Assembly: GCA_921293015.1 (NCBI GenBank)
Contig: OV121092.1
Span: forward strand, 37,145,764-37,209,763
DNA length: 64,000 nucleotides
Reading direction: 5' to 3'
Source of the DNA: Phorcus lineatus
Lineage: Eukaryota; Mollusca; Gastropoda; Trochida; Trochidae
Made by a program: the position numbers and the translations under genes. Below the pieces are notes generated by a model. That model saw nothing but the letters and a program-made list of their open reading frames with translations, was not told the DNA's origin and searched no databases. Positions 9,360 to 45,158 of the stretch are shown here, piece after piece; position 1 is the stretch's first letter, and the number at the start of each line of letters is the position of its first letter.

Positions 9360-9567
9360 CTTAAAAATGCATATTTCTAAACCAAACTTTCATCAAATGT
9401 ACATCACATTGTGTTCTATCGATTGAGCAAGACCAATTTCCTGTCCGGTTCTTGGTTTGGCCTCAAGTTTCGAGCTTAAACAGGTACATATAGCTGATTT
9501 TGACCAAATTTGCGAAAAAAGACTGAGTCCAATATATGCATATTGTTGTAGCGAGCGCGATAACTTT
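9360..9567. repeat. Single B-type satellite monomer
   Basis: A B unit with AGACC, CCGGTT, CTCAAGTTT and the linked TATAG/TTTGCG right half. It separates the D-E-F trimers from the tetramer array that begins at the next unit. Confidence 0.75.
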
Positions 9568-12479: not shown

Positions 12480-15420
12480 CTTAAAAATGCATATTTCTAA
12501 ACCAAACTTTCATCAAATGTACACCACATTGTGTTCTATCGATTGAGCAATACCAATTTCATGTCCGATTCTTGGTTTGGGCTCCAGATTCGAGCTTAAA
12601 CAGGTACAGATAGCTGATTTTGACCAAATTCGCGGGAAAAGACTGAGTCCAAGATATGCATATTGTTGTAGCGAGCGCGATAACTTTCTTAAAAATGCAT
12701 ATTTCTAAACCAAACTTTCATCAAATGTACACCACATTGTGTTCTATCGATTGAGCAACAGCAATTTCCTGTCCGATTCTTGGTTTGGGCTCCGGATTCG
12801 AGCTTAAACAGGTACAGATAGCTGATTTTGAACAAATTCGCGGAAAAAGACTGAGTCCAATATATGCATATTGTTGTAGCGAGCGCGATAACTTTCTTAA
12901 AAATGCATATTTCTAAACCAAACTTTCATCAAATGTACATCACATTGTGTTCTATCAATTGAGCAATACCAATTTCCTGTCCGATTCTTGGTTTGGCCTC
13001 CAGATTCGAGCTTAAACAGGTACAGATAGCTGATTTTGACCAAATTCGCGGAAAAAGACTGAGTCCAATATATGCATATTGTTGTAGCGAGCGCGATAAC
13101 TTTCTTAAAAATGCATATTTCTAAACCAAACTTTTATCAAATGTACATCACATTGTGTTCTATCGATTGAGCAATACCAATTTCCTGTCCGATTCTTGGT
13201 TTGGGCTCCAGATTTGAGCTTAAACAGGTACAGATAGCTGATTTTGACCAAATTCGCGGAAAAAGACTGAGTCCAATATATGCATATTGTTGTAGCGAGC
13301 GCGATAACTTTCTTAAAAATGCATATTTCTAAACCAAACTTTCATCAAATGTACATCACATTGTGTTCTATCGATTGAGCAATACCAATTTCCTGTCTGA
13401 TTCTTGGTTTGGCCTCCAGATTCGAGCTTAAACAAGTACAGATAGCTGATTTTGAACAAATTCGCGGAAAAAGACTGAGTCCAATATATGCATATTGTTG
13501 TAGCGAGCACGATAACTTTCTTAAAAATGCATATTTCTAAACCAAACTTTCATCAAATGTACACCACATTGTGTTCTATCGATTGAGCAATACCAATTTC
13601 ATGTCCGATTCTTGGTTTGGCCTCCAGATTCGAGCTTAAACAGGTACATATAGCTGATTTTGACCAAATTTGCGAAAAAAGACTGAGTCCAATATATGCA
13701 TATTGTTGTAGCGAGCACGATAACTTTCTTAAAAATGCATATTTCTAAACCAAACTTTAATCAAATGTACATCACATTGTGTTCTATAGATTGAGCAATA
13801 CCAATTTCCTGTCTGATTCTTGGTTTGGCCTCCAGATTCGAGCTTAAACAGGTACAGATAGCTGATTTTGAACAAATTCGCGGAAAAAGACTGAGTCCAA
13901 TATATGCATATTGTTGTAGCGAGCGCGATAACTTTCTTAAAAATGCATAATTCTTAACCAAACTTTCATCAAATGTACACCACATTGTGTTCTATCGATT
14001 GAGTAATACCAATTTCCTGTCCGATTCTTGGTTTGGCCTCAAGTTTCGAGCTTAAACAGGTACAGATAGCTGATTTTGACCAAATTCGCGGAAAAAGACT
14101 GAGTCCAATATATGCATATTGTTGTAGCGAGCACGATAACTTTCTTAAAAATGCATATTTCTAAACCAAACTTTCATCAAATGTACATCACATTGTGTTC
14201 TATCGATTGAGCAATAGCAATTTCATGTCCGATTCTTGGTTTGGCCTCCAGATTCGAGCTTAAACAGGTACAGATAGCTGATTTTGACCAAATTCGCGGA
14301 AAAAGACTGAGTCCAAGATATGCATATTGTTGTAGCGAGCGCGATAACTTTCTTAAAAATGCATATTTCTAAACCAAACTTTCATCAAATGTACATCACA
14401 TTGTGTTTTATCGATTGAGCAAGACCAATTTCCTGTCCGGTTCTTGGTTTGGCCTCAAGTTTCGAGCTTAAACAGGTACAGATAGCTGATTTTGACCAAA
14501 TTCGCGGGAAAAGACTGAGTCCAATATATGCATATTGTTGTAGCGAGCGCGATAACTTTCTTAAAAATGCATATTTCTAAACCAAACTTTCATCAAATGT
14601 ACATCACATTGTGTTCTATCGATTGAGCAATACCAATTTCCTGTCCGATTCTTGGTTTGGGCTCAAGATTCGAGCTTAAACAGGTACAGATAGCTGATTT
14701 TGAACAAATTCGCGGAAAAAGACTGAGTCCAATATATGCATATTGTTGTAGCGAGCACGATAACTTTCTTAAAAATGCATATTTCTAAACCAAACTTTCA
14801 TCAAATGTACACCACATTGTGTTCTATCGATTGAGCAATACCAATTTCATGTCCGATTCTTGGTTTGGGCTCCAGATTCGAGCTTAAACAGGTACAGATA
14901 GCTGATTTTGACCAAATTCGCGGGAAAAGACTGAGTCCAAGATATGCATATTGTTGTAGCGAGCGCGATAACTTTCTTAAAAATGCATATTTCTAAACCA
15001 AACTTTCATCAAATGTACATCACATTGTGTTCTATCGATTGAGCAATACCAATTTCCTGTCCGAGTCTTGGTTTGGGCTCAAGATTCGAGCTTAAACAGG
15101 TACAGATAGCTGATTTTGAACAAACTCGCGGAAAAAGACTGAGTCCAATATATGCATATTGTTGTAGCGAGCACGATAACTTTCTTAAAAATGCATATTT
15201 CTAAACCAAACTTTCATCAAATGTACACCACATTGTGTTCTATCGATTGAGCAACAGCAATTTCCTGTCCGATTCTTGGTTTGGGCTCCAGATTTGAGCT
15301 TAAACAGGTACAGATAGCTGATTTTGACCAAATTCGCGGGAAAAGACTGAGTCCAATATATGCATATTGTTGTAGCGAGCGCGATAACTTTCTTAAAAAT
15401 GCATATTTCTAAACCAAACA
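12385..15420. repeat. ~3-kb segment, copy 1 of 3
   Basis: Order from 12,480: A, G (CTCCGG), H, K (TTTATC, ATTTGAG), D, A with GGCCTCC and TATAG, D (TTAATC, TATAGATT), E (CTTAACC), F', B (TTTTATCG), K, A, C (AAACTCGCG), G (ATTTGAG). The same string with the same rare changes is found 8,112 bp later and again 11,232 bp later. Only a few substitutions separate the copies, for example AACAAGTAC here near 13,431 against AACAGGTAC in copy 2, and ATATTG against ATTTTG in the E unit. The left edge is in the right half of the hybrid at 12,272. The right edge shared with copy 2 is within the first 30 bases of the unit at 15,392. Confidence 0.9.
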
Positions 15421-16847
15421 TTCATCAAATGTACACCACATTGTGTTCTATCGATTGAGCAACAGCAATTTCCTGTCCGATTCTTGGTTTGGGCTCCAGA
15501 TTCGAGCTTAAACAGGTACAGATAGCTGATTTTGAACAAATTCGCGGAAAATGACTGAGTCCAATATATGCATATTGTTGTAGCAAACGCGATAACTTTC
15601 TTAAAAATGCATACTTCTAAACCAAACTTTCATCAAATGTACATCACATTGTGTTCTATCGATTGAGCAATACCAATTTCCTGTCCGAGTCTTGGTTTGG
15701 GCTCAAGATTCGAGCTTAAACAGGTACAGATAGCTGATTTTGAACAAATTCGCGGAAAAAGACTGAGTCCAATATATGCATATTGTTGTAGCGAGCACGA
15801 TAACTTTCTTAAAAATGCATATTTCTAAACCAAACTTTCATCAAATGTACACCACATTGTGTTCTATCGATTGAGCAATACCAATTTCATGTCCTATTAT
15901 TGGTTTGGGCTCAAGATTCGAGCTTAAACAGGTACAGATAGCTGATTTTGACCAAATTCGCGGAAAAAGACTGAGTCCAATATATGCATATTGTTGTAGC
16001 GAGCACGATAACTTTCTTAAAAATGCATATTTCTAAACCAAACTTTCATCAAATGTACACCACATTGTGTTCTATCGATTGAGCAATAGCAATTTCATGT
16101 CCGATTCTTGGTTTGGGCTCCAGATTCGAGCTTAAACAGGTACAGATAGCTGATTTTGACCAAATTCGCGGGAAAAGACTGAGTCCAATATATGCATATT
16201 GTTGTAGCGAGCGCGATAACTTTCTTAAAAATGCATATTTCTAAACCAAACATTCATCAAATGTACACCACATTGTGTTCTATCGATTGAGCAACAGCAA
16301 TTTCCTGTCCGATTCTTGGTTTGGCCTCCAGATTCGAGCTTAAACAGGTACAGATAGCTGATTTTGACCAAATTCGCGGAAAAAGACTGAGTCCAATATA
16401 TGCATATGGTTGTAGCGAGCGCGATAACTTTCTTAAAAATGCATATTTCTAAACCAAACTTTCATCAAATGTACACCACATTGTGTTCTATCGATTGAGC
16501 AACAGCAATTTCCTGTCCGATTCTTGGTTTGGCCTCCAGATTCGAGCTTAAACAGGTACAGATAGCTGATTTTGACCAAATTCGCGGAAAAAGACTGAGT
16601 CCAATATATGCATATGGTTGTAGCGAGCGCGATAACTTTCTTAAAAATGCATATTTCTAAACCAAACTTTCATCAAATGTACATCACATTGTGTTCTATC
16701 AATTGAGCAATACCAATTTCCTGTCCGATTCTTGGTTTGGCCTCCAGATTCGAGCTTAAACAGGTACAGATAGCTGATTTTGAACAAATTCGCGGAAAAA
16801 GACTGAGTCCAATATATGCATATTGTTGTAGCGAGCGTGATAACTTT
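15392..16847. repeat. G*-C-J-F-G-G-H run of the nine-monomer HOR family
   Basis: Seven units: G* at 15,392 (A at p29, GAAAATGAC, AGCAAACG), C (C at p15), J, F (CGCGGG), two G units with GGCCTCC and ATATGGTTG, and H with GAAC. This is the core order of the 1,872-bp HOR with one G unit duplicated. The same run, including the paired ATATGG units, is repeated at 26,624-28,079, offset 11,232 bp. Confidence 0.85.
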
Positions 16848-18095
16848 CTTAAAAATGCATATTTCTAAACCAAACTTTCATCAAATGTACATCACATTGT
16901 GTTCTATCAATTGAGCAATACCAATTTCCTGTCCGATTCTTGGTTTGGCCTCCAGATTCGAGCTTAAACAGGTACAGATAGCTGATTTTGACCAAATTCG
17001 CGGAAAAAGACTGAGTCCAATATATGCATATTGTTGTAGCGAGCGTGATAACTTTCTTAAAAATGCATATTTCTAAACCAAACTTTCATCAAATGTACAT
17101 CACATTGTGTTCTAACAATTGAGCAATACCAATTTCCTGTCCGATTCTTGGTTTGGCCTCCAGATTCGAGCTTAAACAGGTACAGATAGCTGATTTTAAC
17201 CAAATTCGCGGAAAAAGACTGAGTCCAATATATGCATATTGTTGTAGCGAGCGCTATAACTTTCTTAAAAATGCATATTTCTAAACCAAACTTTCATCAA
17301 ATGTACATCACATTGTGTTCTATCAATTGAGCAATACCAATTTCCTGTCCGATTCTTGGTTTGGCCTCCAGATTCGAGCTTAAACAGGTACAGATAGCTG
17401 ATTTTGACCAAATTCGCGGAAAAAGACTGAGTCCAATATATGCATATTGTTGTAGCGAGCGTGATAACTTTCTTAAAAATGCATATTTCTAAACCAAACT
17501 TTCATCAAATGTACATCACATTGTGTTCTAACAATTGAGCAATACCAATTTCCTGTCCGATTCTTGGTTTGGCCTCCAGATTCGAGCTTAAACAGGTACA
17601 GATAGCTGATTTTAACCAAATTCGCGGAAAAAGACTGAGTCCAATATATGCATATTGTTGTAGCGAGCGCTATAACTTTCTTAAAAATGCATATTTCTAA
17701 ACCAAACTTTCATCAAATGTACATCACATTGTGTTCTATCAATTGAGCAATACCAATTTCCTGTCCGATTCTTGGTTTGGCCTCCAGATTCGAGCTTAAA
17801 CAGGTACAGATAGCTGATTTTGACCAAATTCGCGGAAAAAGACTGAGTCCAATATATGCATATTGTTGTAGCGAGCGTGATAACTTTCTTAAAAATGCAT
17901 ATTTCTAAACCAAACTTTCATCAAATGTACATCACATTGTGTTCTAACAATTGAGCAATACCAATTTCCTGTCCGATTCTTGGTTTGGCCTCCAGATTCG
18001 AGCTTAAACAGGTACAGATAGCTGATTTTAACCAAATTCGCGGAAAAAGACTGAGTCCAATATATGCATATTGTTGTAGCGAGCGCTATAACTTT
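16848..18095. repeat. 416-bp dimer HOR H-I (three copies)
   Basis: H (ATCAAT, GCGTG) and I (AACAAT, TTTTAACC, GCGCTAT) alternate three times at 16,848, 17,264 and 17,680. By eye the dimers look identical, so the expansion is probably recent. The related run at 28,080-28,911 has two dimers, with ATCGAT in the second H. Confidence 0.9.
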
Positions 18096-19967
18096 CTTAA
18101 AAATGCATATTTCTAAACCAAACTTTCATCAAATGTACACCACATTGTGTTCTATCGATTGAGTAATACCAATTTCCTGTCCGATTCTTGGTTTGGCCTC
18201 CAGATTCGAGCTTAAACAGGTACAGATAGCTGATTTTGACCAAATTCGCGGAAAAAGACTGAGTCCAATATATGCATTTTGTTGTAGCGAGCACGATAAC
18301 TTTCTTAAAAATGCATATTTCTAAACCAAACTTTCATCAAATGTACACCACATTGTGTTCTATCGATTGAGCAACAGCAATTTCATGTCCGATTCTTGGT
18401 TTGGGCTCCAGATTCGAGCTTAAACAGGTACAGATAGCTGATTTTGACCAAATTCGCGGGAAAAGACTGAGTCCAATATATGCATATTGTTGTAGCGAGC
18501 GCGATAACTTTCTTAAAAATGCATATTTCTAAACCAAACATTCATCAAATGTACACCACATTGTGTTCTATCGATTGAGCAACAGCAATTTCCTGTCCGA
18601 TTCTTGGTTTGGGCTCCAGATTCGAGCTTAAACAGGTACAGATAGCTGATTTTGAACAAATTCGCGGAAAATGACTGAGTCCAATATATGCATATTGTTG
18701 TAGCAAACGCGATAACTTTCTTAAAAATGCATACTTCTAAACCAAACTTTCATCAAATGTACATCACATTGTGTTCTATCGATTGAGCAATACCAATTTC
18801 CTGTCCGAGTCTTGGTTTGGGCTCAAGATTCGAGCTTAAACAGGTACAGATAGCTGATTTTGAACAAATTCGCGGAAAAAGACTGAGTCCAATATATGCA
18901 TATTGTTGTAGCGAGCACGATAACTTTCTTAAAAATGCATATTTCTAAACCAAACTTTCATCAAATGTACACCACATTGTGTTCTATCGATTGAGCAATA
19001 CCAATTTCATGTCCTATTATTGGTTTGGGCTCAAGATTCGAGCTTAAACAGGTACAGATAGCTGATTTTGACCAAATTCGCGGAAAAAGACTGAGTCCAA
19101 TATATGCATATTGTTGTAGCGAGCACGATAACTTTCTTAAAAATGCATATTTCTAAACCAAACTTTCATCAAATGTACACCACATTGTGTTCTATCGATT
19201 GAGCAATAGCAATTTCATGTCCGATTCTTGGTTTGGGCTCCAGATTCGAGCTTAAACAGGTACAGATAGCTGATTTTGACCAAATTCGCGGGAAAAGACT
19301 GAGTCCAATATATGCATATTGTTGTAGCGAGCGCGATAACTTTCTTAAAAATGCATATTTCTAAACCAAACATTCATCAAATGTACACCACATTGTGTTC
19401 TATCGATTGAGCAACAGCAATTTCCTGTCCGATTCTTGGTTTGGCCTCCAGATTCGAGCTTAAACAGGTACAGATAGCTGATTTTGACCAAATTCGCGGA
19501 AAAAGACTGAGTCCAATATATGCATATTGTTGTAGCGAGCGCGATAACTTTCTTAAAAATGCATATTTCTAAACCAAACTTTCATCAAATGTACATCACA
19601 TTGTGTTCTATCAATTGAGCAATACCAATTTCCTGTCCGATTCTTGGTTTGGCCTCCAGATTCGAGCTTAAACAGGTACAGATAGCTGATTTTGACCAAA
19701 TTCGCGGAAAAAGACTGAGTCCAATATATGCATATTGTTGTAGCGAGCGTGATAACTTTCTTAAAAATGCATATTTCTAAACCAAACTTTCATCAAATGT
19801 ACATCACATTGTGTTCTAACAATTGAGCAATACCAATTTCCTGTCCGATTCTTGGTTTGGCCTCCAGATTCGAGCTTAAACAGGTACAGATAGCTGATTT
19901 TAACCAAATTCGCGGAAAAAGACTGAGTCCAATATATGCATATTGTTGTAGCGAGCGCGATAACTTT
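18096..19967. repeat. Nine-monomer HOR unit, 1,872 bp (E-G-G*-C-J-F-G-H-I)
   Basis: Reading order: E (T at p15 in this copy, ATTTTG, GCACG), G with p82 A and CGCGGG, G* (A at p29, GAAAATGAC, AGCAAACG), C (C at p15, GAGTC), J (CCTATTATTGG), F with CGCGGG, G with A at p29 and GGCCTCC, H with GCGTG, I with TTTTAACC. The same order recurs at 28,912, 31,824 and 33,696. Here E has T at p15, while the other E copies have A; the left edge of this E may be a crossover with the H-I dimers before it. Confidence 0.9.
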
Positions 19968-20591
19968 CTTAAAAATGCATAATTCTAAACCAAACTTTCA
20001 TCAAATGTACACCACATTGTGTTCTATCGATTGAGTAATACCAATTTCCTGTCCGATTCTTGGTTTGGCCTCCAGATTCGAGCTTAAACAGGTACAGATA
20101 GCTGATTTTGACCAAATTCGCGGAAAAAGACTGAGTCCAAGATATGCATATTGTTGTAGCGAGCGCGATAACTTTCTTAAAAATGCATATTTCTAAACCA
20201 AACTTTCATCAAATGTACATCACATTGTGTTCTATCGATTGAGCAAGACCAATTTCCTGTCCGGTTCTTGGTTTGGCCTCAAGTTTCGAGCTTAAACAGG
20301 TACAGATAGCTGATTTTGACCAAATTCGCGGAAAAAGACTGAGTCCAATATATGCATATTGTTGTAGCGAGCGCGATAACTTTCTTAAAAATGCATATTT
20401 CTAAACCAAACTTTCATCAAATGTACATCACATTGTGTTCTATCGATTGAGCAATACCAATTTCCTGTCCGATTCTTGGTTTGGCCTCCAGATTCGAGCT
20501 TAAACAGGTACAGATAGCTGATTTTGAACAAATTCGCGGAAAAAGACTGAGTCCAATATATGCATATTGTTGTAGCGAGCACGATAACTTT
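19968..20591. repeat. E-B-K bridge between HOR domains
   Basis: Three units: an E with A at p15 but CCAAGAT/GCGCG at the right end, a B with CAGATAG, and a K with GAAC/GCACG. The E unit is a hybrid, with an E left side and a right end typical of F' units in F'-B-K strings. This marks the switch from the nine-monomer HOR to copy 2 of the 3-kb segment. The right half of the K unit already matches the hybrid at 12,272. Confidence 0.8.
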
Positions 20592-23532
20592 CTTAAAAAT
20601 GCATATTTCTAAACCAAACTTTCATCAAATGTACACCACATTGTGTTCTATCGATTGAGCAATACCAATTTCATGTCCGATTCTTGGTTTGGGCTCCAGA
20701 TTCGAGCTTAAACAGGTACAGATAGCTGATTTTGACCAAATTCGCGGGAAAAGACTGAGTCCAAGATATGCATATTGTTGTAGCGAGCGCGATAACTTTC
20801 TTAAAAATGCATATTTCTAAACCAAACTTTCATCAAATGTACACCACATTGTGTTCTATCGATTGAGCAACAGCAATTTCCTGTCCGATTCTTGGTTTGG
20901 GCTCCGGATTCGAGCTTAAACAGGTACAGATAGCTGATTTTGAACAAATTCGCGGAAAAAGACTGAGTCCAATATATGCATATTGTTGTAGCGAGCGCGA
21001 TAACTTTCTTAAAAATGCATATTTCTAAACCAAACTTTCATCAAATGTACATCACATTGTGTTCTATCAATTGAGCAATACCAATTTCCTGTCCGATTCT
21101 TGGTTTGGCCTCCAGATTCGAGCTTAAACAGGTACAGATAGCTGATTTTGACCAAATTCGCGGAAAAAGACTGAGTCCAATATATGCATATTGTTGTAGC
21201 GAGCGCGATAACTTTCTTAAAAATGCATATTTCTAAACCAAACTTTTATCAAATGTACATCACATTGTGTTCTATCGATTGAGCAATACCAATTTCCTGT
21301 CCGATTCTTGGTTTGGGCTCCAGATTTGAGCTTAAACAGGTACAGATAGCTGATTTTGACCAAATTCGCGGAAAAAGACTGAGTCCAATATATGCATATT
21401 GTTGTAGCGAGCGCGATAACTTTCTTAAAAATGCATATTTCTAAACCAAACTTTCATCAAATGTACATCACATTGTGTTCTATCGATTGAGCAATACCAA
21501 TTTCCTGTCTGATTCTTGGTTTGGCCTCCAGATTCGAGCTTAAACAGGTACAGATAGCTGATTTTGAACAAATTCGCGGAAAAAGACTGAGTCCAATATA
21601 TGCATATTGTTGTAGCGAGCACGATAACTTTCTTAAAAATGCATATTTCTAAACCAAACTTTCATCAAATGTACACCACATTGTGTTCTATCGATTGAGC
21701 AATACCAATTTCATGTCCGATTCTTGGTTTGGCCTCCAGATTCGAGCTTAAACAGGTACATATAGCTGATTTTGACCAAATTTGCGAAAAAAGACTGAGT
21801 CCAATATATGCATATTGTTGTAGCGAGCACGATAACTTTCTTAAAAATGCATATTTCTAAACCAAACTTTAATCAAATGTACATCACATTGTGTTCTATA
21901 GATTGAGCAATACCAATTTCCTGTCTGATTCTTGGTTTGGCCTCCAGATTCGAGCTTAAACAGGTACAGATAGCTGATTTTGAACAAATTCGCGGAAAAA
22001 GACTGAGTCCAATATATGCATATTGTTGTAGCGAGCGCGATAACTTTCTTAAAAATGCATAATTCTTAACCAAACTTTCATCAAATGTACACCACATTGT
22101 GTTCTATCGATTGAGTAATACCAATTTCCTGTCCGATTCTTGGTTTGGCCTCAAGTTTCGAGCTTAAACAGGTACAGATAGCTGATTTTGACCAAATTCG
22201 CGGAAAAAGACTGAGTCCAATATATGCATTTTGTTGTAGCGAGCACGATAACTTTCTTAAAAATGCATATTTCTAAACCAAACTTTCATCAAATGTACAT
22301 CACATTGTGTTCTATCGATTGAGCAATAGCAATTTCATGTCCGATTCTTGGTTTGGCCTCCAGATTCGAGCTTAAACAGGTACAGATAGCTGATTTTGAC
22401 CAAATTCGCGGAAAAAGACTGAGTCCAAGATATGCATATTGTTGTAGCGAGCGCGATAACTTTCTTAAAAATGCATATTTCTAAACCAAACTTTCATCAA
22501 ATGTACATCACATTGTGTTTTATCGATTGAGCAAGACCAATTTCCTGTCCGGTTCTTGGTTTGGCCTCAAGTTTCGAGCTTAAACAGGTACAGATAGCTG
22601 ATTTTGACCAAATTCGCGGGAAAAGACTGAGTCCAATATATGCATATTGTTGTAGCGAGCGCGATAACTTTCTTAAAAATGCATATTTCTAAACCAAACT
22701 TTCATCAAATGTACATCACATTGTGTTCTATCGATTGAGCAATACCAATTTCCTGTCCGGTTCTTGGTTTGGGCTCAAGATTCGAGCTTAAACAGGTACA
22801 GATAGCTGATTTTGAACAAATTCGCGGAAAAAGACTGAGTCCAATATATGCATATTGTTGTAGCGAGCACGATAACTTTCTTAAAAATGCATATTTCTAA
22901 ACCAAACTTTCATCAAATGTACACCACATTGTGTTCTATCGATTGAGCAATACCAATTTCATGTCCGATTCTTGGTTTGGGCTCCAGATTCGAGCTTAAA
23001 CAGGTACAGATAGCTGATTTTGACCAAATTCGCGGGAAAAGACTGAGTCCAAGATATGCATATTGTTGTAGCGAGCGCGATAACTTTCTTAAAAATGCAT
23101 ATTTCTAAACCAAACTTTCATCAAATGTACATCACATTGTGTTCTATCGATTGAGCAATACCAATTTCCTGTCCGAGTCTTGGTTTGGGCTCAAGATTCG
23201 AGCTTAAACAGGTACAGATAGCTGATTTTGAACAAACTCGCGGAAAAAGACTGAGTCCAATATATGCATATTGTTGTAGCGAGCACGATAACTTTCTTAA
23301 AAATGCATATTTCTAAACCAAACTTTCATCAAATGTACACCACATTGTGTTCTATCGATTGAGCAACAGCAATTTCCTGTCCGATTCTTGGTTTGGGCTC
23401 CAGATTTGAGCTTAAACAGGTACAGATAGCTGATTTTGACCAAATTCGCGGGAAAAGACTGAGTCCAATATATGCATATTGTTGTAGCGAGCGCGATAAC
23501 TTTCTTAAAAATGCATATTTCTAAACCAAACA
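20497..23532. repeat. ~3-kb segment, copy 2 of 3
   Basis: Matches 12,385-15,420 at an offset of 8,112 bp (39 monomers), with the same rare markers in the same order: CTCCGG, TTTATC, ATTTGAG, TTAATC with TATAGATT, CTTAACC, TTTTATCG, AAACTCGCG. Differences I noticed are AACAGGTAC, ATTTTG in the E unit, and CCGGTT in the K-like unit near 22,757. The match ends abruptly after the A at p29 of the unit at 23,504, where the sequence switches to a D monomer. That switch is a visible recombination junction. Confidence 0.9.
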
Positions 23533-23919
23533 TTCATCAAATGTACATCACATTGTGTTCTATCGATTGAGCAATACCAATTTCCTGTCTGATTCTTGGT
23601 TTGGCCTCCAGATTCGAGCTTAAACAGGTACAGATAGCTGATTTTGAACAAATTCGCGGAAAAAGACTGAGTCCAATATATGCATATTGTTGTAGCGAGC
23701 ACGATAACTTTCTTAAAAATGCATATTTCTAAACCAAACTTTCATCAAATGTACACCACATTGTGTTCTATCGATTGAGCAATACCAATTTCATGTCCGA
23801 TTCTTGGTTTGGCCTCCAGATTCGAGCTTAAACAGGTACATATAGCTGATTTTGACCAAATTTGCGAAAAAAGACTGAGTCCAAGATATGCATATTGTTG
23901 TAGCGAGCGCGATAACTTT
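23504..23919. repeat. Recombinant two-monomer junction (G/D and A/A hybrids)
   Basis: The unit at 23,504 starts like G* (A at p29, AAACATTC) but from p45 on is type D (TACATC, CTGATT, GAAC, GCACG). The next unit at 23,712 begins as the GGCCTCC/TATAG/TTTGCG form of A and ends CCAAGAT/GCGCG, as in the A unit that leads the 3-kb segment. Two switches in 400 bp are consistent with the crossover that produced the tandem 3,120-bp spacing between copies 2 and 3. Confidence 0.8.
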
Positions 23920-26900
23920 CTTAAAAATGCATATTTCTAAACCAAACTTTCATCAAATGTACACCACATTGTGTTCTATCGATTGAGCAACAGCAATTTC
24001 CTGTCCGATTCTTGGTTTGGGCTCCGGATTCGAGCTTAAACAGGTACAGATAGCTGATTTTGAACAAATTCGCGGAAAAAGACTGAGTCCAATATATGCA
24101 TATTGTTGTAGCGAGCGCGATAACTTTCTTAAAAATGCATATTTCTAAACCAAACTTTCATCAAATGTACATCACATTGTGTTCTATCAATTGAGCAATA
24201 CCAATTTCCTGTCCGATTCTTGGTTTGGCCTCCAGATTCGAGCTTAAACAGGTACAGATAGCTGATTTTGACCAAATTCGCGGAAAAAGACTGAGTCCAA
24301 TATATGCATATTGTTGTAGCGAGCGCGATAACTTTCTTAAAAATGCATATTTCTAAACCAAACTTTTATCAAATGTACATCACATTGTGTTCTATCGATT
24401 GAGCAATACCAATTTCCTGTCCGATTCTTGGTTTGGGCTCCAGATTTGAGCTTAAACAGGTACAGATAGCTGATTTTGACCAAATTCGCGGAAAAAGACT
24501 GAGTCCAATATATGCATATTGTTGTAGCGAGCGCGATAACTTTCTTAAAAATGCATATTTCTAAACCAAACTTTCATCAAATGTACATCACATTGTGTTC
24601 TATCGATTGAGCAATACCAATTTCCTGTCTGATTCTTGGTTTGGCCTCCAGATTCGAGCTTAAACAGGTACAGATAGCTGATTTTGAACAAATTCGCGGA
24701 AAAAGACTGAGTCCAATATATGCATATTGTTGTAGCGAGCACGATAACTTTCTTAAAAATGCATATTTCTAAACCAAACTTTCATCAAATGTACACCACA
24801 TTGTGTTCTATCGATTGAGCAATACCAATTTCATGTCCGATTCTTGGTTTGGCCTCCAGATTCGAGCTTAAACAGGTACATATAGCTGATTTTGACCAAA
24901 TTTGCGAAAAAAGACTGAGTCCAATATATGCATATTGTTGTAGCGAGCACGATAACTTTCTTAAAAATGCATATTTCTAAACCAAACTTTAATCAAATGT
25001 ACATCACATTGTGTTCTATAGATTGAGCAATACCAATTTCCTGTCTGATTCTTGGTTTGGCCTCCAGATTCGAGCTTAAACAGGTACAGATAGCTGATTT
25101 TGAACAAATTCGCGGAAAAAGACTGAGTCCAATATATGCATATTGTTGTAGCGAGCGCGATAACTTTCTTAAAAATGCATAATTCTTAACCAAACTTTCA
25201 TCAAATGTACACCACATTGTGTTCTATCGATTGAGTAATACCAATTTCCTGTCCGATTCTTGGTTTGGCCTCAAGTTTCGAGCTTAAACAGGTACAGATA
25301 GCTGATTTTGACCAAATTCGCGGAAAAAGACTGAGTCCAATATATGCATTTTGTTGTAGCGAGCACGATAACTTTCTTAAAAATGCATATTTCTAAACCA
25401 AACTTTCATCAAATGTACATCACATTGTGTTCTATCGATTGAGCAATAGCAATTTCATGTCCGATTCTTGGTTTGGCCTCCAGATTCGAGCTTAAACAGG
25501 TACAGATAGCTGATTTTGACCAAATTCGCGGAAAAAGACTGAGTCCAAGATATGCATATTGTTGTAGCGAGCGCGATAACTTTCTTAAAAATGCATATTT
25601 CTAAACCAAACTTTCATCAAATGTACATCACATTGTGTTTTATCGATTGAGCAAGACCAATTTCCTGTCCGGTTCTTGGTTTGGCCTCAAGTTTCGAGCT
25701 TAAACAGGTACAGATAGCTGATTTTGACCAAATTCGCGGGAAAAGACTGAGTCAAATATATGCATATTGTTGTAGCGAGCGCGATAACTTTCTTAAAAAT
25801 GCATATTTCTAAACCAAACTTTCATCAAATGTACATCACATTGTGTTCTATCGATTGAGCAATACCAATTTCCTGTCCGATTCTTGGTTTGGGCTCAAGA
25901 TTCGAGCTTAAACAGGTACAGATAGCTGATTTTGAACAAATTCGCGGAAAAAGACTGAGTCCAATATATGCATATTGTTGTAGCGAGCACGATAACTTTC
26001 TTAAAAATGCATATTTCTAAACCAAACTTTCATCAAATGTACACCACATTGTGTTCTATCGATTGAGCAATACCAATTTCATGTCCGATTCTTGGTTTGG
26101 GCTCCAGATTCGAGCTTAAACAGGTACAGATAGCTGATTTTGACCAAATTCGCGGGAAAAGACTGAGTCCAAGATATGCATATTGTTGTAGCGAGCGCGA
26201 TAACTTTCTTAAAAATGCATATTTCTAAACCAAACTTTCATCAAATGTACATCACATTGTGTTCTATCGATTGAGCAATACCAATTTCCTGTCCGAGTCT
26301 TGGTTTGGGCTCAAGATTCGAGCTTAAACAGGTACAGATAGCTGATTTTGAACAAACTCGCGGAAAAAGACTGAGTCCAATATATGCATATTGTTGTAGC
26401 GAGCACGATAACTTTCTTAAAAATGCATATTTCTAAACCAAACTTTCATCAAATGTACACCACATTGTGTTCTATCGATTGAGCAACAGCAATTTCCTGT
26501 CCGATTCTTGGTTTGGGCTCCAGATTTGAGCTTAAACAGGTACAGATAGCTGATTTTGACCAAATTCGCGGGAAAAGACTGAGTCCAATATATGCATATT
26601 GTTGTAGCGAGCGCGATAACTTTCTTAAAAATGCATATTTCTAAACCAAACATTCATCAAATGTACACCACATTGTGTTCTATCGATTGAGCAACAGCAA
26701 TTTCCTGTCCGATTCTTGGTTTGGGCTCCAGATTCGAGCTTAAACAGGTACAGATAGCTGATTTTGAACAAATTCGCGGAAAATGACTGAGTCCAATATA
26801 TGCATATTGTTGTAGCAAACGCGATAACTTTCTTAAAAATGCATACTTCTAAACCAAACTTTCATCAAATGTACATCACATTGTGTTCTATCGATTGAGC

Positions 26901-28911
26901 AATACCAATTTCCTGTCCGAGTCTTGGTTTGGGCTCAAGATTCGAGCTTAAACAGGTACAGATAGCTGATTTTGAACAAATTCGCGGAAAAAGACTGAGT
27001 CCAATATATGCATATTGTTGTAGCGAGCACGATAACTTTCTTAAAAATGCATATTTCTAAACCAAACTTTCATCAAATGTACACCACATTGTGTTCTATC
27101 GATTGAGCAATACCAATTTCATGTCCTATTATTGGTTTGGGCTCAAGATTCGAGCTTAAACAGGTACAGATAGCTGATTTTGACCAAATTCGCGGAAAAA
27201 GACTGAGTCCAATATATGCATATTGTTGTAGCGAGCACGATAACTTTCTTAAAAATGCATATTTCTAAACCAAACTTTCATCAAATGTACACCACATTGT
27301 GTTCTATCGATTGAGCAATAGCAATTTCATGTCCGATTCTTGGTTTGGGCTCCAGATTCGAGCTTAAACAGGTACAGATAGCTGATTTTGACCAAATTCG
27401 CGGGAAAAGACTGAGTCCAATATATGCATATTGTTGTAGCGAGCGCGATAACTTTCTTAAAAATGCATATTTCTAAACCAAACATTCATCAAATGTACAC
27501 CACATTGTGTTCTATCGATTGAGCAACAGCAATTTCCTGTCCGATTCTTGGTTTGGCCTCCAGATTCGAGCTTAAACAGGTACAGATAGCTGATTTTGAC
27601 CAAATTCGCGGAAAAAGACTGAGTCCAATATATGCATATGGTTGTAGCGAGCGCGATAACTTTCTTAAAAATGCATATTTCTAAACCAAACTTTCATCAA
27701 ATGTACACCACATTGTGTTCTATCGATTGAGCAACAGCAATTTCCTGTCCGATTCTTGGTTTGGCCTCCAGATTCGAGCTTAAACAGGTACAGATAGCTG
27801 ATTTTGACCAAATTCGCGGAAAAAGACTGAGTCCAATATATGCATATGGTTGTAGCGAGCGCGATAACTTTCTTAAAAATGCATATTTCTAAACCAAACT
27901 TTCATCAAATGTACATCACATTGTGTTCTATCAATTGAGCAATACCAATTTCCTGTCCGATTCTTGGTTTGGCCTCCAGATTCGAGCTTAAACAGGTACA
28001 GATAGCTGATTTTGAACAAATTCGCGGAAAAAGACTGAGTCCAATATATGCATATTGTTGTAGCGAGCGTGATAACTTTCTTAAAAATGCATATTTCTAA
28101 ACCAAACTTTCATCAAATGTACATCACATTGTGTTCTATCAATTGAGCAATACCAATTTCCTGTCCGATTCTTGGTTTGGCCTCCAGATTCGAGCTTAAA
28201 CAGGTACAGATAGCTGATTTTGACCAAATTCGCGGAAAAAGACTGAGTCCAATATATGCATATTGTTGTAGCGAGCGTGATAACTTTCTTAAAAATGCAT
28301 ATTTCTAAACCAAACTTTCATCAAATGTACATCACATTGTGTTCTAACAATTGAGCAATACCAATTTCCTGTCCGATTCTTGGTTTGGCCTCCAGATTCG
28401 AGCTTAAACAGGTACAGATAGCTGATTTTAACCAAATTCGCGGAAAAAGACTGAGTCCAATATATGCATATTGTTGTAGCGAGCGCTATAACTTTCTTAA
28501 AAATGCATATTTCTAAACCAAACTTTCATCAAATGTACATCACATTGTGTTCTATCGATTGAGCAATACCAATTTCCTGTCCGATTCTTGGTTTGGCCTC
28601 CAGATTCGAGCTTAAACAGGTACAGATAGCTGATTTTGACCAAATTCGCGGAAAAAGACTGAGTCCAATATATGCATATTGTTGTAGCGAGCGTGATAAC
28701 TTTCTTAAAAATGCATATTTCTAAACCAAACTTTCATCAAATGTACATCACATTGTGTTCTAACAATTGAGCAATACCAATTTCCTGTCCGATTCTTGGT
28801 TTGGCCTCCAGATTCGAGCTTAAACAGGTACAGATAGCTGATTTTAACCAAATTCGCGGAAAAAGACTGAGTCCAATATATGCATATTGTTGTAGCGAGC
28901 GCTATAACTTT
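23880..28911. repeat. ~5-kb segment, copy 3 (matches 12.65-17.68 kb)
   Basis: From the right end of the unit at 23,712 the order is that of copy 1 at an offset of 11,232 bp (54 monomers). The match continues past the end of copy 2, through G*, C, J, F, G, G, H and two H-I dimers, to 28,911. It is also 3,120 bp (15 monomers) after copy 2 for the part they share. Small differences include GTCAAATATA near 25,753 and ATCGAT in place of ATCAAT near 28,555. This is the longest internal match in the window. Confidence 0.88.
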
Positions 28912-31823
28912 CTTAAAAATGCATAATTCTAAACCAAACTTTCATCAAATGTACACCACATTGTGTTCTATCGATTGAGTAATACCAATTTCCTGTCCGA
29001 TTCTTGGTTTGGCCTCCAGATTCGAGCTTAAACAGGTACAGATAGCTGATTTTGACCAAATTCGCGGAAAAAGACTGAGTCCAATATATGCATTTTGTTG
29101 TAGCGAGCACGATAACTTTCTTAAAAATGCATATTTCTAAACCAAACTTTCATCAAATGTACACCACATTGTGTTCTATCGATTGAGCAACAGCAATTTC
29201 ATGTCCGATTCTTGGTTTGGGCTCCAGATTCGAGCTTAAACAGGTACAGATAGCTGATTTTGACCAAATTCGCGGGAAAAGACTGAGTCCAATATATGCA
29301 TATTGTTGTAGCGAGCGCGATAACTTTCTTAAAAATGCATATTTCTAAACCAAACATTCATCAAATGTACACCACATTGTGTTCTATCGATTGAGCAACA
29401 GCAATTTCCTGTCCGATTCTTGGTTTGGGCTCCAGATTCGAGCTTAAACAGGTACAGATAGCTGATTTTGAACAAATTCGCGGAAAATGACTGAGTCCAA
29501 TATATGCATATTGTTGTAGCAAACGCGATAACTTTCTTAAAAATGCATACTTCTAAACCAAACTTTCATCAAATGTACATCACATTGTGTTCTATCGATT
29601 GAGCAATACCAATTTCCTGTCCGAGTCTTGGTTTGGGCTCAAGATTCGAGCTTAAACAGGTACAGATAGCTGATTTTGAACAAATTCGCGGAAAAAGACT
29701 GAGTCCAATATATGCATATTGTTGTAGCGAGCACGATAACTTTCTTAAAAATGCATATTTCTAAACCAAACTTTCATCAAATGTACACCACATTGTGTTC
29801 TATCGATTGAGCAATACCAATTTCATGTCCTATTATTGGTTTGGGCTCAAGATTCGAGCTTAAACAGGTACAGATAGCTGATTTTGACCAAATTCGCGGA
29901 AAAAGACTGAGTCCAATATATGCATATTGTTGTAGCGAGCACGATAACTTTCTTAAAAATGCATATTTCTAAACCAAACTTTCATCAAATGTACACCACA
30001 TTGTGTTCTATCGATTGAGCAATAGCAATTTCATGTCCGATTCTTGGTTTGGGCTCCAGATTCGAGCTTAAACAGGTACAGATAGCTGATTTTGACCAAA
30101 TTCGCGGGAAAAGACTGAGTCCAATATATGCATATTGTTGTAGCGAGCGCGATAACTTTCTTAAAAATGCATATTTCTAAACCAAACATTCATCAAATGT
30201 ACACCACATTGTGTTCTATCGATTGAGCAACAGCAATTTCCTGTCCGATTCTTGGTTTGGCCTCCAGATTCGAGCTTAAACAGGTACAGATAGCTGATTT
30301 TGACCAAATTCGCGGAAAAAGACTGAGTCCAATATATGCATATTGTTGTAGCGAGCGCGATAACTTTCTTAAAAATGCATATTTCTAAACCAAACTTTCA
30401 TCAAATGTACATCACATTGTGTTCTATCAATTGAGCAATACCAATTTCCTGTCCGATTCTTGGTTTGGCCTCCAGATTCGAGCTTAAACAGGTACAGATA
30501 GCTGATTTTGACCAAATTCGCGGAAAAAGACTGAGTCCAATATATGCATATTGTTGTAGCGAGCGTGATAACTTTCTTAAAAATGCATATTTCTAAACCA
30601 AACTTTCATCAAATGTACATCACATTGTGTTCTAACAATTGAGCAATACCAATTTCCTGTCCGGTTCTTGGTTTGGCCTCAAGTTTCGAGCTTAAACAGG
30701 TACAGATAGCTGATTTTGACCAAATTCGCGGAAAAAGACTGAGTCCAATATATGCATATGGTTGTAGCGAGCGCGATAACTTTCTTAAAAATGCATATTT
30801 CTAAACCAAACTTTCATCAAATGTACATCACATTGTGTTCTATCAATTGAGCAATACCAATTTCCTGTCCGATTCTTGGTTTGGCCTCCAGATTCGAGCT
30901 TAAACAGGTACAGATAGCTGATTTTGAACAAATTCGCGGAAAAAGACTGAGTCCAATATATGCATATTGTTGTAGCGAGCGTGATAACTTTCTTAAAAAT
31001 GCATATTTCTAAACCAAACTTTCATCAAATGTACATCACATTGTGTTCTATCGATTGAGCAAGACCAATTTCCTGTCCGGTTCTTGGTTTGGCCTCAAGT
31101 TTCGAGCTTAAACAGGTACAGATAGCTGATTTTGACCAAATTCGCGGAAAAAGACTGAGTCCAATATATGCATATGGTTGTAGCGAGCGCGATAACTTTC
31201 TTAAAAATGCATATTTCTAAACCAAACTTTCATCAAATGTACATCACATTGTGTTCTATCAATTGAGCAATACCAATTTCCTGTCCGATTCTTGGTTTGG
31301 CCTCCAGATTCGAGCTTAAACAGGTACAGATAGCTGATTTTGAACAAATTCGCGGAAAAAGACTGAGTCCAATATATGCATATTGTTGTAGCGAGCGTGA
31401 TAACTTTCTTAAAAATGCATATTTCTAAACCAAACTTTCATCAAATGTACATCACATTGTGTTCTATCAATTGAGCAATACCAATTTCCTGTCCGATTCT
31501 TGGTTTGGCCTCCAGATTCGAGCTTAAACAGGTACAGATAGCTGATTTTGACCAAATTCGCGGAAAAAGACTGAGTCCAATATATGCATATTGTTGTAGC
31601 GAGCGTGATAACTTTCTTAAAAATGCATATTTCTAAACCAAACTTTCATCAAATGTACATCACATTGTGTTCTAACAATTGAGCAATACCAATTTCCTGT
31701 CCGATTCTTGGTTTGGCCTCCAGATTCGAGCTTAAACAGGTACAGATAGCTGATTTTAACCAAATTCGCGGAAAAAGACTGAGTCCAATATATGCATATT
31801 GTTGTAGCGAGCGCTATAACTTT
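28912..31823. repeat. Expanded 14-monomer HOR unit, 2,912 bp
   Basis: Starts with the standard E-G-G*-C-J-F-G-H. At 30,576 a hybrid unit follows: an I left part (AACAAT) joined to a B right part (CCGGTT, CTCAAGTTT, ATATGGTTG). After it come H (GAAC), B (ATATGG), H (GAAC), H and I. The pairs at 30,576-30,991 and 30,992-31,407 form a local 416-bp duplication. The unit equals the nine-monomer HOR with five extra monomers in its H-I part. Confidence 0.88.
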
Positions 31824-33695
31824 CTTAAAAATGCATAATTCTAAACCAAACTTTCATCAAATGTACACCACATTGTGTTCTATCGATTGAGTAATACCAA
31901 TTTCCTGTCCGATTCTTGGTTTGGCCTCCAGATTCGAGCTTAAACAGGTACAGATAGCTGATTTTGACCAAATTCGCGGAAAAAGACTGAGTCCAATATA
32001 TGCATTTTGTTGTAGCGAGCACGATAACTTTCTTAAAAATGCATATTTCTAAACCAAACTTTCATCAAATGTACACCACATTGTGTTCTATCGATTGAGC
32101 AACAGCAATTTCATGTCCGATTCTTGGTTTGGGCTCCAGATTCGAGCTTAAACAGGTACAGATAGCTGATTTTGACCAAATTCGCGGGAAAAGACTGAGT
32201 CCAATATATGCATATTGTTGTAGCGAGCGCGATAACTTTCTTAAAAATGCATATTTCTAAACCAAACATTCATCAAATGTACACCACATTGTGTTCTATC
32301 GATTGAGCAACAGCAATTTCCTGTCCGATTCTTGGTTTGGGCTCCAGATTCGAGCTTAAACAGGTACAGATAGCTGATTTTGAACAAATTCGCGGAAAAT
32401 GACTGAGTCCAATATATGCATATTGTTGTAGCAAACGCGATAACTTTCTTAAAAATGCATACTTCTAAACCAAACTTTCATCAAATGTACATCACATTGT
32501 GTTCTATCGATTGAGCAATACCAATTTCCTGTCCGAGTCTTGGTTTGGGCTCAAGATTCGAGCTTAAACAGGTACAGATAGCTGATTTTGAACAAATTCG
32601 CGGAAAAAGACTGAGTCCAATATATGCATATTGTTGTAGCGAGCACGATAACTTTCTTAAAAATGCATATTTCTAAACCAAACTTTCATCAAATGTACAC
32701 CACATTGTGTTCTATCGATTGAGCAATACCAATTTCATGTCCTATTATTGGTTTGGGCTCCAGATTCGAGCTTAAACAGGTACAGATAGCTGATTTTGAC
32801 CAAATTCGCGGAAAAAGACTGAGTCCAATATATGCATATTGTTGTAGCGAGCACGATAACTTTCTTAAAAATGCATATTTCTAAACCAAACTTTCATCAA
32901 ATGTACACCACATTGTGTTCTATCGATTGAGCAATAGCAATTTCATGTCCGATTCTTGGTTTGGGCTCCAGATTCGAGCTTAAACAGGTACAGATAGCTG
33001 ATTTTGACCAAATTCGCGGGAAAAGACTGAGTCCAATATATGCATATTGTTGTAGCGAGCGCGATAACTTTCTTAAAAATGCATATTTCTAAACCAAACA
33101 TTCATCAAATGTACACCACATTGTGTTCTATCGATTGAGCAACAGCAATTTCCTGTCCGATTCTTGGTTTGGCCTCCAGATTCGAGCTTAAACAGGTACA
33201 GATAGCTGATTTTGACCAAATTCGCGGAAAAAGACTGAGTCCAATATATGCATATTGTTGTAGCGAGCGTGATAACTTTCTTAAAAATGCATATTTCTAA
33301 ACCAAACTTTCATCAAATGTACATCACATTGTGTTCTAACAATTGAGCAATACCAATTTCCTGTCCGATTCTTGGTTTGGCCTCCAGATTCGAGCTTAAA
33401 CAGGTACAGATAGCTGATTTTGACCAAATTCGCGGAAAAAGACTGAGTCCAATATATGCATATTGTTGTAGCGAGCGTGATAACTTTCTTAAAAATGCAT
33501 ATTTCTAAACCAAACTTTCATCAAATGTACATCACATTGTGTTCTAACAATTGAGCAATACCAATTTCCTGTCCGATTCTTGGTTTGGCCTCCAGATTCG
33601 AGCTTAAACAGGTACAGATAGCTGATTTTAACCAAATTCGCGGAAAAAGACTGAGTCCAATATATGCATATTGTTGTAGCGAGCGCTATAACTTT
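31824..33695. repeat. Nine-monomer HOR unit, 1,872 bp
   Basis: E (A at p15, ATTTTG), G with p82 A, G*, C, J, F, G with A at p29, I, I. Two details set it apart: J has GGGCTCCAG where the earlier HOR copies have GGGCTCAAG, and the H position is held by an AACAAT (I-like) unit, so the end reads G(GCGTG)-I-I. The J change is shared with the next unit, which suggests the two are a direct tandem duplication. Confidence 0.88.
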
Positions 33696-35567
33696 CTTAA
33701 AAATGCATAATTCTAAACCAAACTTTCATCAAATGTACACCACATTGTGTTCTATCGATTGAGTAATACCAATTTCCTGTCCGATTCTTGGTTTGGCCTC
33801 CAGATTCGAGCTTAAACAGGTACAGATAGCTGATTTTGACCAAATTCGCGGAAAAAGACTGAGTCCAATATATGCATTTTGTTGTAGCGAGCACGATAAC
33901 TTTCTTAAAAATGCATATTTCTAAACCAAACTTTCATCAAATGTACACCACATTGTGTTCTATCGATTGAGCAACAGCAATTTCATGTCCGATTCTTGGT
34001 TTGGGCTCCAGATTCGAGCTTAAACAGGTACAGATAGCTGATTTTGACCAAATTCGCGGGAAAAGACTGAGTCCAATATATGCATATTGTTGTAGCGAGC
34101 GCGATAACTTTCTTAAAAATGCATATTTCTAAACCAAACATTCATCAAATGTACACCACATTGTGTTCTATCGATTGAGCAACAGCAATTTCCTGTCCGA
34201 TTCTTGGTTTGGGCTCCAGATTCGAGCTTAAACAGGTACAGATAGCTGATTTTGAACAAATTCGCGGAAAATGACTGAGTCCAATATATGCATATTGTTG
34301 TAGCAAACGCGATAACTTTCTTAAAAATGCATACTTCTAAACCAAACTTTCATCAAATGTACATCACATTGTGTTCTATCGATTGAGCAATACCAATTTC
34401 CTGTCCGAGTCTTGGTTTGGGCTCAAGATTCGAGCTTAAACAGGTACAGATAGCTGATTTTGAACAAATTCGCGGAAAAAGACTGAGTCCAATATATGCA
34501 TATTGTTGTAGCGAGCACGATAACTTTCTTAAAAATGCATATTTCTAAACCAAACTTTCATCAAATGTACACCACATTGTGTTCTATCGATTGAGCAATA
34601 CCAATTTCATGTCCTATTATTGGTTTGGGCTCCAGATTCGAGCTTAAACAGGTACAGATAGCTGATTTTGACCAAATTCGCGGAAAAAGACTGAGTCCAA
34701 TATATGCATATTGTTGTAGCGAGCACGATAACTTTCTTAAAAATGCATATTTCTAAACCAAACTTTCATCAAATGTACACCACATTGTGTTCTATCGATT
34801 GAGCAATAGCAATTTCATGTCCGATTCTTGGTTTGGGCTCCAGATTCGAGCTTAAACAGGTACAGATAGCTGATTTTGACCAAATTCGCGGGAAAAGACT
34901 GAGTCCAATATATGCATATTGTTGTAGCGAGCGCGATAACTTTCTTAAAAATGCATATTTCTAAACCAAACATTCATCAAATGTACACCACATTGTGTTC
35001 TATCGATTGAGCAACAGCAATTTCCTGTCCGATTCTTGGTTTGGCCTCCAGATTCGAGCTTAAACAGGTACAGATAGCTGATTTTGACCAAATTCGCGGA
35101 AAAAGACTGAGTCCAATATATGCATATTGTTGTAGCGAGCGCGATAACTTTCTTAAAAATGCATATTTCTAAACCAAACTTTCATCAAATGTACATCACA
35201 TTGTGTTCTATCAATTGAGCAATACCAATTTCCTGTCCGATTCTTGGTTTGGCCTCCAGATTCGAGCTTAAACAGGTACAGATAGCTGATTTTGACCAAA
35301 TTCGCGGAAAAAGACTGAGTCCAATATATGCATATTGTTGTAGCGAGCGTGATAACTTTCTTAAAAATGCATATTTCTAAACCAAACTTTCATCAAATGT
35401 ACATCACATTGTGTTCTAACAATTGAGCAATACCAATTTCCTGTCCGATTCTTGGTTTGGCCTCCAGATTCGAGCTTAAACAGGTACAGATAGCTGATTT
35501 TAACCAAATTCGCGGAAAAAGACTGAGTCCAATATATGCATATTGTTGTAGCGAGCGCGATAACTTT
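33696..35567. repeat. Nine-monomer HOR unit, 1,872 bp
   Basis: Standard order E-G-G*-C-J-F-G-H-I in a unit directly abutting the previous HOR copy. J again has GGGCTCCAG. The H position is a true H (ATCAAT, GCGTG) and the I unit ends GCGCGATA, not GCGCTATA. After it the array returns to E at 35,568, but the next units are F' and B, so the nine-monomer pattern ends here. Confidence 0.9.
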
Positions 35568-38500: not shown

Positions 38501-38687
38501 ACCAAACATTCATCAAATGTACACCACATTGTGTTCTATCGATTGAGCAACAGCAATTTCCTGTCCGATTCTTGGTTTGGGCTCCAGATTCGAGCTTAAA
38601 CAGGTACAGATAGCTGATTTTGACCAAATTCGCGGAAAAAGACTGAGTCCAATATATGCATATTGTTGTAGCGAGCGCGATAACTTT
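35568..38687. repeat. Mixed domain with two F'-B strings and C-J'-F-G
   Basis: Units in order: E, F' (CCAAGAT), B, J' (ATAGC with CCTATTATTGG), F (TTCTTGTCC), G with p82 A, F' (CCAAGAT), B with A at p29, a K carrying AACAAT, A, B with G at p29 (AAACGTTC), C (C at p15), J' (GAAAAAAACTGAG), F, G (AAAATTGCAT). The part from 36,816 resembles 58,658-60,945 in content and order. The K/I hybrid at 37,232 joins an I-type p60-62 to a GAAC/GCACG right end. Confidence 0.78.
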
Positions 38688-45136: not shown

Positions 45137-45158
45137 CTTAAAAATGCATATTTCTAAA

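What the first reader, a model, noticed from the sequence alone, without database searches (positions are those of the whole stretch)
15392..35567. Nine-monomer HOR (1,872 bp) tracked by a private marker monomer
The G* unit, with GAAAATGAC and AGCAAACG, occurs six times: at 15,392, 18,512, 26,624, 29,328, 32,240 and 34,112. Spacings are 15, 39, 13, 14 and 9 monomers, all whole multiples of 208. The shared flanking order E-G-G*-C-J-F-G-H-I shows a real higher-order unit whose length varies mainly by gain or loss of H-I or B-H pairs.
Basis: seen in the sequence. Interest (0 to 1): 0.7.

Follow-up and report, generated by a model that had tools for sequence, protein, structure and literature searches.

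The report
Nested duplications in topshell satellite DNA
The window is part of a megabase-scale, probably centromeric, tandem repeat of a sea snail; the marked unit follows blocks that were copied in irregular sizes, not a regular nine-unit repeat, and a near-identical copy of most of the window lies about 470,000 bases away in the assembly.

Summary
The marker is real. The G* unit occurs six times at exactly the stated places, spaced 15, 39, 13, 14 and 9 monomers. Genome-wide its 45-mer has nine exact places, all on one chromosome. The nine-monomer (1,872 bp) HOR is not supported: within the finding's span 16% of unit pairs at lag 9 are near-identical, but only 4%, 7%, 8% and 2% at lags 18, 27, 36 and 45, and only about six units (offsets -1 to +4) are shared by all six copies. 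The window is an irregular, nested patchwork of multi-monomer block duplications.

The host is very probably the topshell Phorcus lineatus, chromosome 12. Samples put the 208-bp array at 1.53 Mb or more, with an inverted stretch and one inserted element. New here: about 55 kb of the window is collinear with a segment 468-473 kb upstream. There 197 of 239 units pair with 0.10% difference, broken by 14 whole-monomer gaps. Sparser samples suggest a duplication of 150 kb or more. A centromere is likely but untested; a haplotypic assembly duplication is not excluded.

The parts
1..64000 (+). 208-bp satellite array filling the whole window, 307 complete head-to-tail units
   Evidence: lag-208 identity 0.954
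15392..15599 (+). G* marker unit, copy 1
18512..18719 (+). G* marker unit, copy 2
26624..26831 (+). G* marker unit, copy 3
29328..29535 (+). G* marker unit, copy 4
32240..32447 (+). G* marker unit, copy 5
34112..34319 (+). G* marker unit, copy 6
15184..16431 (+). six-unit core (offsets -1 to +4) shared by all six copies; the other five begin 208 bp before each G* and run 1,248 bp
12688..17679 (+). 24-unit block, first copy of the lag-54 duplication (second copy 23,920-28,911), 99.92%
12480..15391 (+). 14-unit block, first copy of the lag-39 duplication (second copy from 20,592), 99.90%
17264..19759 (+). 12-unit block, first copy of the lag-52 duplication (second copy from 28,080), 99.92%
31408..33903 (+). 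12-unit block of the one lag-9 duplication among the 45 best blocks (second copy 33,280-35,775), 99.84%; the main basis of the nine-monomer reading
53040..55536 (+). 12-unit block of a lag-13 duplication outside the finding (second copy from 55,745), 99.96%
7072..61985 (+). stretch collinear with C19:36,685,091-36,734,806 (468-473 kb upstream); 197 of 239 upstream units paired at 0.10% difference, 14 whole-monomer gaps

Best explanation
This is part of the 208-bp satellite array of one chromosome of (very probably) Phorcus lineatus, chromosome 12, and most likely of its centromere. Shown in the assembly: no fixed higher-order period in the window; blocks of a few to about two dozen units are duplicated, overlapping and nested, at lags from 2 to 90 units; and most of the window has a second collinear copy 468-473 kb away that differs mainly by whole-monomer gains or losses. 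G* is one mutated unit carried along as a passenger. Inferred: the steps arise by out-of-register exchange or repair between sister chromatids (unequal exchange or break-induced replication), which tends to keep the phase because any unit can pair with any other; the array serves as platform for the kinetochore or its heterochromatin, and the exact higher-order pattern is a by-product and not itself the function.
For: Marker and spacings. Core of about six units. Block table, best 44 against 4-7 for shuffled order. No regular period: in the span the near-identical fraction is 0.16 at lag 9 (87 pairs) but 0.04, 0.07, 0.08 and 0.02 at lags 18, 27, 36 and 45; lag 15 gives 0.23 (81 pairs), lag 52 0.30 (44), lag 54 0.29 (42) and lag 66 0.40 (30). 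Upstream copy: gapped alignment score 480 against 9, 12 and 7 in three shuffles. Further collinear sample pairs at about the same offset (467.5, 471.5, 475.0 and 489.6 kb). Six of the 14 gaps have a near-identical adjacent block of the same size, as tandem gain or loss predicts. The satellite is found from C19:36.375 to 37.905 Mb on a 47.87-Mb chromosome, and again on C11 with its own subfamily. Host assembly. Both mechanisms are described in the review PMC8997354 (passages read).
Against: No CENP-A, methylation, Hi-C or FISH data were available, so the centromere is inferred from size, monomer length and A+T content (63% in the window). The recalled CENP-B box is missed by 3 of its 9 fixed bases at best. 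For 8 of the 14 gaps no near-identical adjacent block of the same size was found, and three of the six that pass are single-unit gaps, where the criterion is weak. Of 39 substitutions between the two copies 26 are at sites where both letters occur at least four times in the window, so conversion or imperfect pairing of units contributes. Over the whole window lag 9 (0.124) is close to the best lags (0.134 at 15, 0.133 at 13). The list of chromosomes carrying the satellite is incomplete.
Confidence: 0.8

Rival explanations
1. A true nine-monomer (1,872 bp) HOR is the unit of the array, blurred by gain and loss of two-unit pairs.
For: One 12-unit block repeats at lag 9 at 99.84%. In the span lag 9 stands above its neighbours (0.16 against 0.00, 0.01, 0.00 and 0.02 at lags 6, 7, 8 and 10), and over the whole window it is the third best lag (0.124, behind 15 and 13). 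A D-K pair does vary in number.
Against: Multiples of 9 show no excess in the span (0.04, 0.07, 0.08 and 0.02 at 18, 27, 36 and 45). The six copies share only about six units. The upstream copy has G* at spacings 12 and 17, not 9.
Confidence: 0.07
2. The copy 468-473 kb upstream is an assembly artefact: two haplotypes of one array placed one after the other in the same scaffold. The local nested blocks would remain real.
For: The genome note reports 225 corrected joins and 83 removed haplotypic duplications, contig N50 4.9 Mb and 32-fold HiFi (PMC10444997, first of three parts read). High base identity with many copy-number differences is also what two alleles of a satellite array would show.
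Against: The paired units differ by only 0.10%, low for two alleles of a broadcast-spawning marine snail (recalled expectation, not tested). The assembly was curated for such duplications, QV 56.5. None of the 57 loci fetched (292,368 bases) holds an N, but most of the stretch between the two copies was not read, so contig gaps there are not excluded.
Confidence: 0.25
3. The array is pericentromeric or interstitial heterochromatin and the active centromere lies elsewhere.
For: No functional data. The satellite was located here on two contigs only; the listed places of the 32-mer open with C11, so if the list is in contig order the contigs before it lack that exact word.
Against: Megabase size, A+T-rich, nucleosome-scale unit, and only one insertion met in the samples of the array. 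None of the 7 samples outside it on chromosome 12 holds this satellite; other satellites were not looked for.
Confidence: 0.2

Closest known systems
Irregular, local-nested higher-order repeats of centromeric satellites (human CEN9, CEN13 and CEN18 in the HiCAT paper PMC10053651: passages, and section 9; the likeness to Arabidopsis CEN178 HORs is recalled)
   Same: Blocks of several monomers duplicated at high identity, nested and of varying size, within one chromosome's array.
   Different: The human arrays described there have a canonical pattern in which subunits are amplified; here no dominant pattern was found in the 307 units. The satellite sequence was not compared with theirs; the host is unrelated.
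Human alpha-satellite canonical HORs (recalled)
   Same: Monomer order is informative, and marker units track copies.
   Different: No repeat of one fixed multi-monomer unit over the window.
PcH-Sat of the limpet Patella caerulea (PMC11121367, passages incl. from the abstract)
   Same: Gastropod, AT-rich, monomer of similar length class (179 bp); its authors are inclined to call it centromeric.
   Different: Different length; sequences were not compared here, and the passages I saw give no long-range order of units.

Membership tests
Satellite DNA (tandem array) | Long head-to-tail array of similar units | tested here: met
   307 units in the window; every sample from C19:36.375 to 37.905 Mb is satellite, apart from one 5.1-kb insertion
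Canonical higher-order repeat (HOR) array | One fixed number of monomers per unit, repeated in tandem, with copies far more alike than the monomers within a unit | tested here: not met
   No dominant lag; lag 9 near-identical fraction 0.16 in the span and 0.12 over the window, multiples of 9 at 0.02-0.08 in the span. Tested for the window only, not the whole array
Canonical higher-order repeat (HOR) array | Same-position monomers group in a tree across copies | tested here: inconclusive
   Met for offsets 0 to +4 and weakly for -1; not met for the other 16 of 22 offsets tested
Irregular or local-nested HORs | Multi-monomer blocks duplicated at near identity with varying block size and spacing | tested here: met
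   45 best blocks listed, lags 2-90, best score 44 against 4-7 in 20 order shuffles
Functional centromere | CENP-A chromatin | not testable with these tools
   no chromatin data
Functional centromere | One large array per chromosome | tested here: inconclusive
   One array found on C19 and one on C11, by sampling only
CENP-B-type satellite | CENP-B box (recalled 17-bp consensus, 9 fixed bases) | tested here: not met
   best 3 mismatches on either strand of the consensus unit; single variant units were not scanned

The most novel reading that the evidence does not exclude
A centromere-scale array in a gastropod carries a very recent long-range duplication (55 kb read through, 150 kb or more by sparse samples), about 470 kb apart. 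Over 197 paired units its two copies differ by 41 base differences (39 substitutions and two one-base length changes, 0.10%) but by 14 whole-monomer gaps. Block gain and loss would then run at about one event per three point changes. The pair is a natural clock for centromere restructuring within one chromosome, and it orders events: the 38- and 15-unit expansions around G* are absent from the upstream copy.
Probability: 0.6. Interest if true: 0.5.

Novelty: new member of a known kind. Interest (0 to 1): 0.33.

Why it matters
Long-range monomer order in mollusc satellites seems little described: among the papers listed by my searches (listings only, capped at 5-30 rows) one is a gastropod satellite paper with monomer data (PMC11121367) and none is on Phorcus satellites. 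If the long-range duplication is real and not haplotypic, the two copies let one count block gains and losses against point mutations within one chromosome, which bears on how centromere arrays expand. The nine-monomer HOR itself should not be carried forward.

Tried and rejected
Rejected: a nine-monomer period. Rejected: dispersal of G* over chromosomes (its exact 45-mer has nine places, all on C19; variants with mismatches were not searched). Rejected: a period near 11,648 bp (56 units) suggested by the raw lag profile. That profile is shaped by one-base phase slips; counted by unit, lag 56 has only 4% near-identical pairs over the window. Led nowhere: Rfam on the window (0 matches), a 10-bp AA/TT/TA periodicity of the consensus (none), the CENP-B box, a tRNA search on the mitochondrial piece (0, bacterial code). 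A second marker test returned nothing because I gave it wrong columns; the type-based test in the same call is the one used. In one search one printed D/W identity (95.1) is wrong because units of 207 or 209 bp were scored as full mismatches; replace it. The 0.10% difference is somewhat favoured by the scoring, since units with more than two differences are penalised; 42 of 239 upstream units were left unpaired. One search failed (nothing to read).

Not answered: whether the inserted element's junction (sent three times) or sample L015 (sent seven times) recurs elsewhere, always busy; and the 18S search (not repeated).
Full report
What was checked. The two marker words of the finding occur six times each, on the + strand only, at the stated places. 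Cutting the window at CTTAAAAATGCATA gives 307 complete units; of the 307 distances between successive starts 302 are 208, three 209 and two 207. The alignment has 210 columns, 142 of them invariant, and 122 distinct units. On the 37 columns with at least four minor letters there are 104 types; G* is one type with six members, units 74, 89, 128, 141, 155 and 164, with three changes no other window unit has. The marker and its spacings are right.

Is it a nine-monomer HOR? Aligned on G*, the six copies are near-identical at offsets -1 to +4, mixed at -4 to -2 and +5 to +7, and not closer than random sets (p above 0.05) at the 21 offsets tested beyond that. A FastTree tree of all 307 units groups offsets 0 to +4 in clades of 6, 10, 11, 12 and 10 leaves (support missing or low for most of them; many units are identical) and offset -1 in one of 32. 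The other 16 of 22 offsets tested need clades of 162-268 leaves; for 300 random sets of six the smallest was 119, the 5th percentile 188 and the median 257, so offsets -4, -2, +6 and +7 (162-186) are slightly better than most random sets and the rest are not. In the finding's span (units 74-169) pairs with at most one difference make up 16% at lag 9, 11% at 13, 15% at 14, 23% at 15, 30% at 52, 29% at 54 and 40% at 66, but 4%, 7%, 8% and 2% at lags 18, 27, 36 and 45. A regular HOR would give nearly 100% at one lag and its multiples. Over the whole window the best lags are 15, 13 and 9 (0.134, 0.133, 0.124), so lag 9 is one of several weak short lags.

The raw base-by-base lag profile (lags below 12,000) falls smoothly from 208, has no peak at 1,872 and rises again near 11,648. 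Both the fall and the rise come mainly from the five one-base length changes, because the unit-by-unit profile is nearly flat and lag 56 is poor (0.04).

What is there instead. Ungapped block search finds 24 units repeated at lag 54 (99.92%), 14 at lag 39, 13 at lag 15, 12 at lags 52, 13 and 9, and smaller ones; the 45 best were listed, with lags from 2 to 90. The best score is 44, against 4-7 in 20 shuffles of unit order. The blocks overlap and nest. G* copies 1 and 3 lie in the lag-54 pair, copies 2 and 4 in the lag-52 pair, and copies 5 and 6 in the lag-9 pair.

Surroundings. The window is C19:37,145,764-37,209,763 of a 957.8-Mb genome of 74 contigs. Samples show the satellite at every place tested from C19:36.375 to 37.905 Mb, apart from one insertion, and at none of 35.0, 36.0, 36.3, 36.325, 36.350, 38.0 and 39.0 Mb. 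It lies on the minus strand in the five samples from 37.400 to 37.504 Mb and on the plus strand in the rest, apart from two minus matches in L041. The insertion, about 5.1 kb at 37,298,407-37,303,500, has inverted ends of about 54 bp (85% alike) and a 1,203-residue open frame; a 776-residue piece of it has an OTU-protease match just over Pfam's cut-off (23.7 against 23.3 bits). C11 holds another array, from 8,402,827 to between 8.802 and 9.000 Mb. Of 60 pieces cut from four C11 samples (50 of 208, 9 of 209 and one uncut stretch of 1,650 bp) none equals a unit of the C19 samples, and the consensus of the 208-bp units differs from that of C19 at five sites. A conserved 32-mer has 7,611 plus and 3,606 minus exact places genome-wide and none for the reversed control. 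C19 between its empty samples can hold at most about 7,900 units and C11 about 2,900, fewer than the 11,217 places, so further copies probably lie elsewhere (inference).

Host. The mitochondrial contig (19,115 bp) has COX1 with 13 TGA read through. The assembly span, the mitochondrial length and the sizes of C19 (47.87 Mb) and C11 (58.70 Mb) agree with Phorcus lineatus chromosomes 12 and 6 in the genome note PMC10444997, of which I read the first of three parts. That note gives 957,853,961 bp in 78 scaffolds against 957,807,699 bp in 74 contigs here, so the copy held is nearly but not exactly that set. The gene order ND3-ND2-COX1-COX2, which I read by eye and hold from recall to be gastropod-like, agrees; it was not tested.

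A second copy of the window. The G* 45-mer has nine exact places in the genome, all on C19: the six of the window and three at 36.692-36.698 Mb. Reading 36,685,000-36,734,999 and aligning it unit by unit to the window pairs 197 of its 239 units with window units 34-297 in order. There are 41 differences (0.10%; 39 substitutions and two one-base length changes) and 14 whole-monomer gaps, two of which adjoin and may be one event. The score is 480 against 9, 12 and 7 with shuffled units. Of the 39 substitutions 26 are at sites where both letters occur at least four times in the window, and in 10 one letter occurs at most once. The upstream copy has three G* units at spacings 12 and 17 and lacks the window's 38- and 15-unit extra blocks. 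So those expansions arose after the split, or were lost upstream.

How far the second copy reaches. Other samples pair at about the same offset: L009 with the window (467.5 kb, score 30.4), L056 with L016 (489.6, 28.2), L008 with L057 (471.5, 21.0) and L056 with L015 (475.0, 12.6). This suggests a duplicated tract of at least 36.632-36.782 and 37.104-37.272 Mb; its ends were not found. The outer limits rest on weaker evidence than the 55-kb core: pairs at other offsets score up to 16.4 (upstream copy with L056, 72.8 kb) and 15.4 (L056 with the window, 404 kb), and many others 6-11.

How it most likely works. Shown: changes come mostly in whole monomers, and blocks overlap and nest. Six of the 14 gaps have a near-identical adjacent block of the same size, three of them single units where this says little; eight do not. 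Inferred: out-of-register exchange or repair between sister chromatids, by unequal exchange or break-induced replication, both described for satellite centromeres in PMC8997354 (passages read). The array is probably the chromosome's centromere, on the grounds of size, A+T content and unit length. This was not tested, and no close CENP-B box was found in the consensus.

Limits. The 470-kb copy could be two haplotypes laid end to end; reads were not available to decide. None of the 57 loci fetched (292,368 bases) contains an N, but most of the array was not read. Several genome searches did not complete by the machine. Literature: HiCAT, PMC10053651 (passages; section 9), describes local-nested HORs in human centromeres; the Arabidopsis comparison is recalled.

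Noticed in passing
C19:37,298,407-37,303,500 (L029 8408-10000 with L017 1-3500): A 5.1-kb element inserted in the satellite, with inverted ends of about 54 bp and a 1,203-residue open frame whose tested piece has a match to OTU-type cysteine protease just over Pfam's cut-off; it looks like a DNA transposon.
   Followed up: partly
C19 between 37.380 and 37.550 Mb (L031, L032, L033, L034, L019): A stretch of the array in inverted orientation; break points were not located.
   Followed up: partly
window units at 1,665 (207 bp), 42,432 (209), 45,137 (207), 54,080 (209) and 56,785 (209): Five one-base length changes shift the phase of the array and shape the raw lag profile.
   Followed up: partly
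C11:8,402,827 onward (L044-L047): A second array of the same family with its own subfamily; 9 of 60 pieces cut are 209 bp.
   Followed up: partly
L037 (C19:37,650,000) and L005 (C19:36,500,000): Locally very homogeneous stretches (89% of 18 and 93% of 15 units have an exact duplicate in the same sample), a possible sign of very recent expansion.
   Followed up: no
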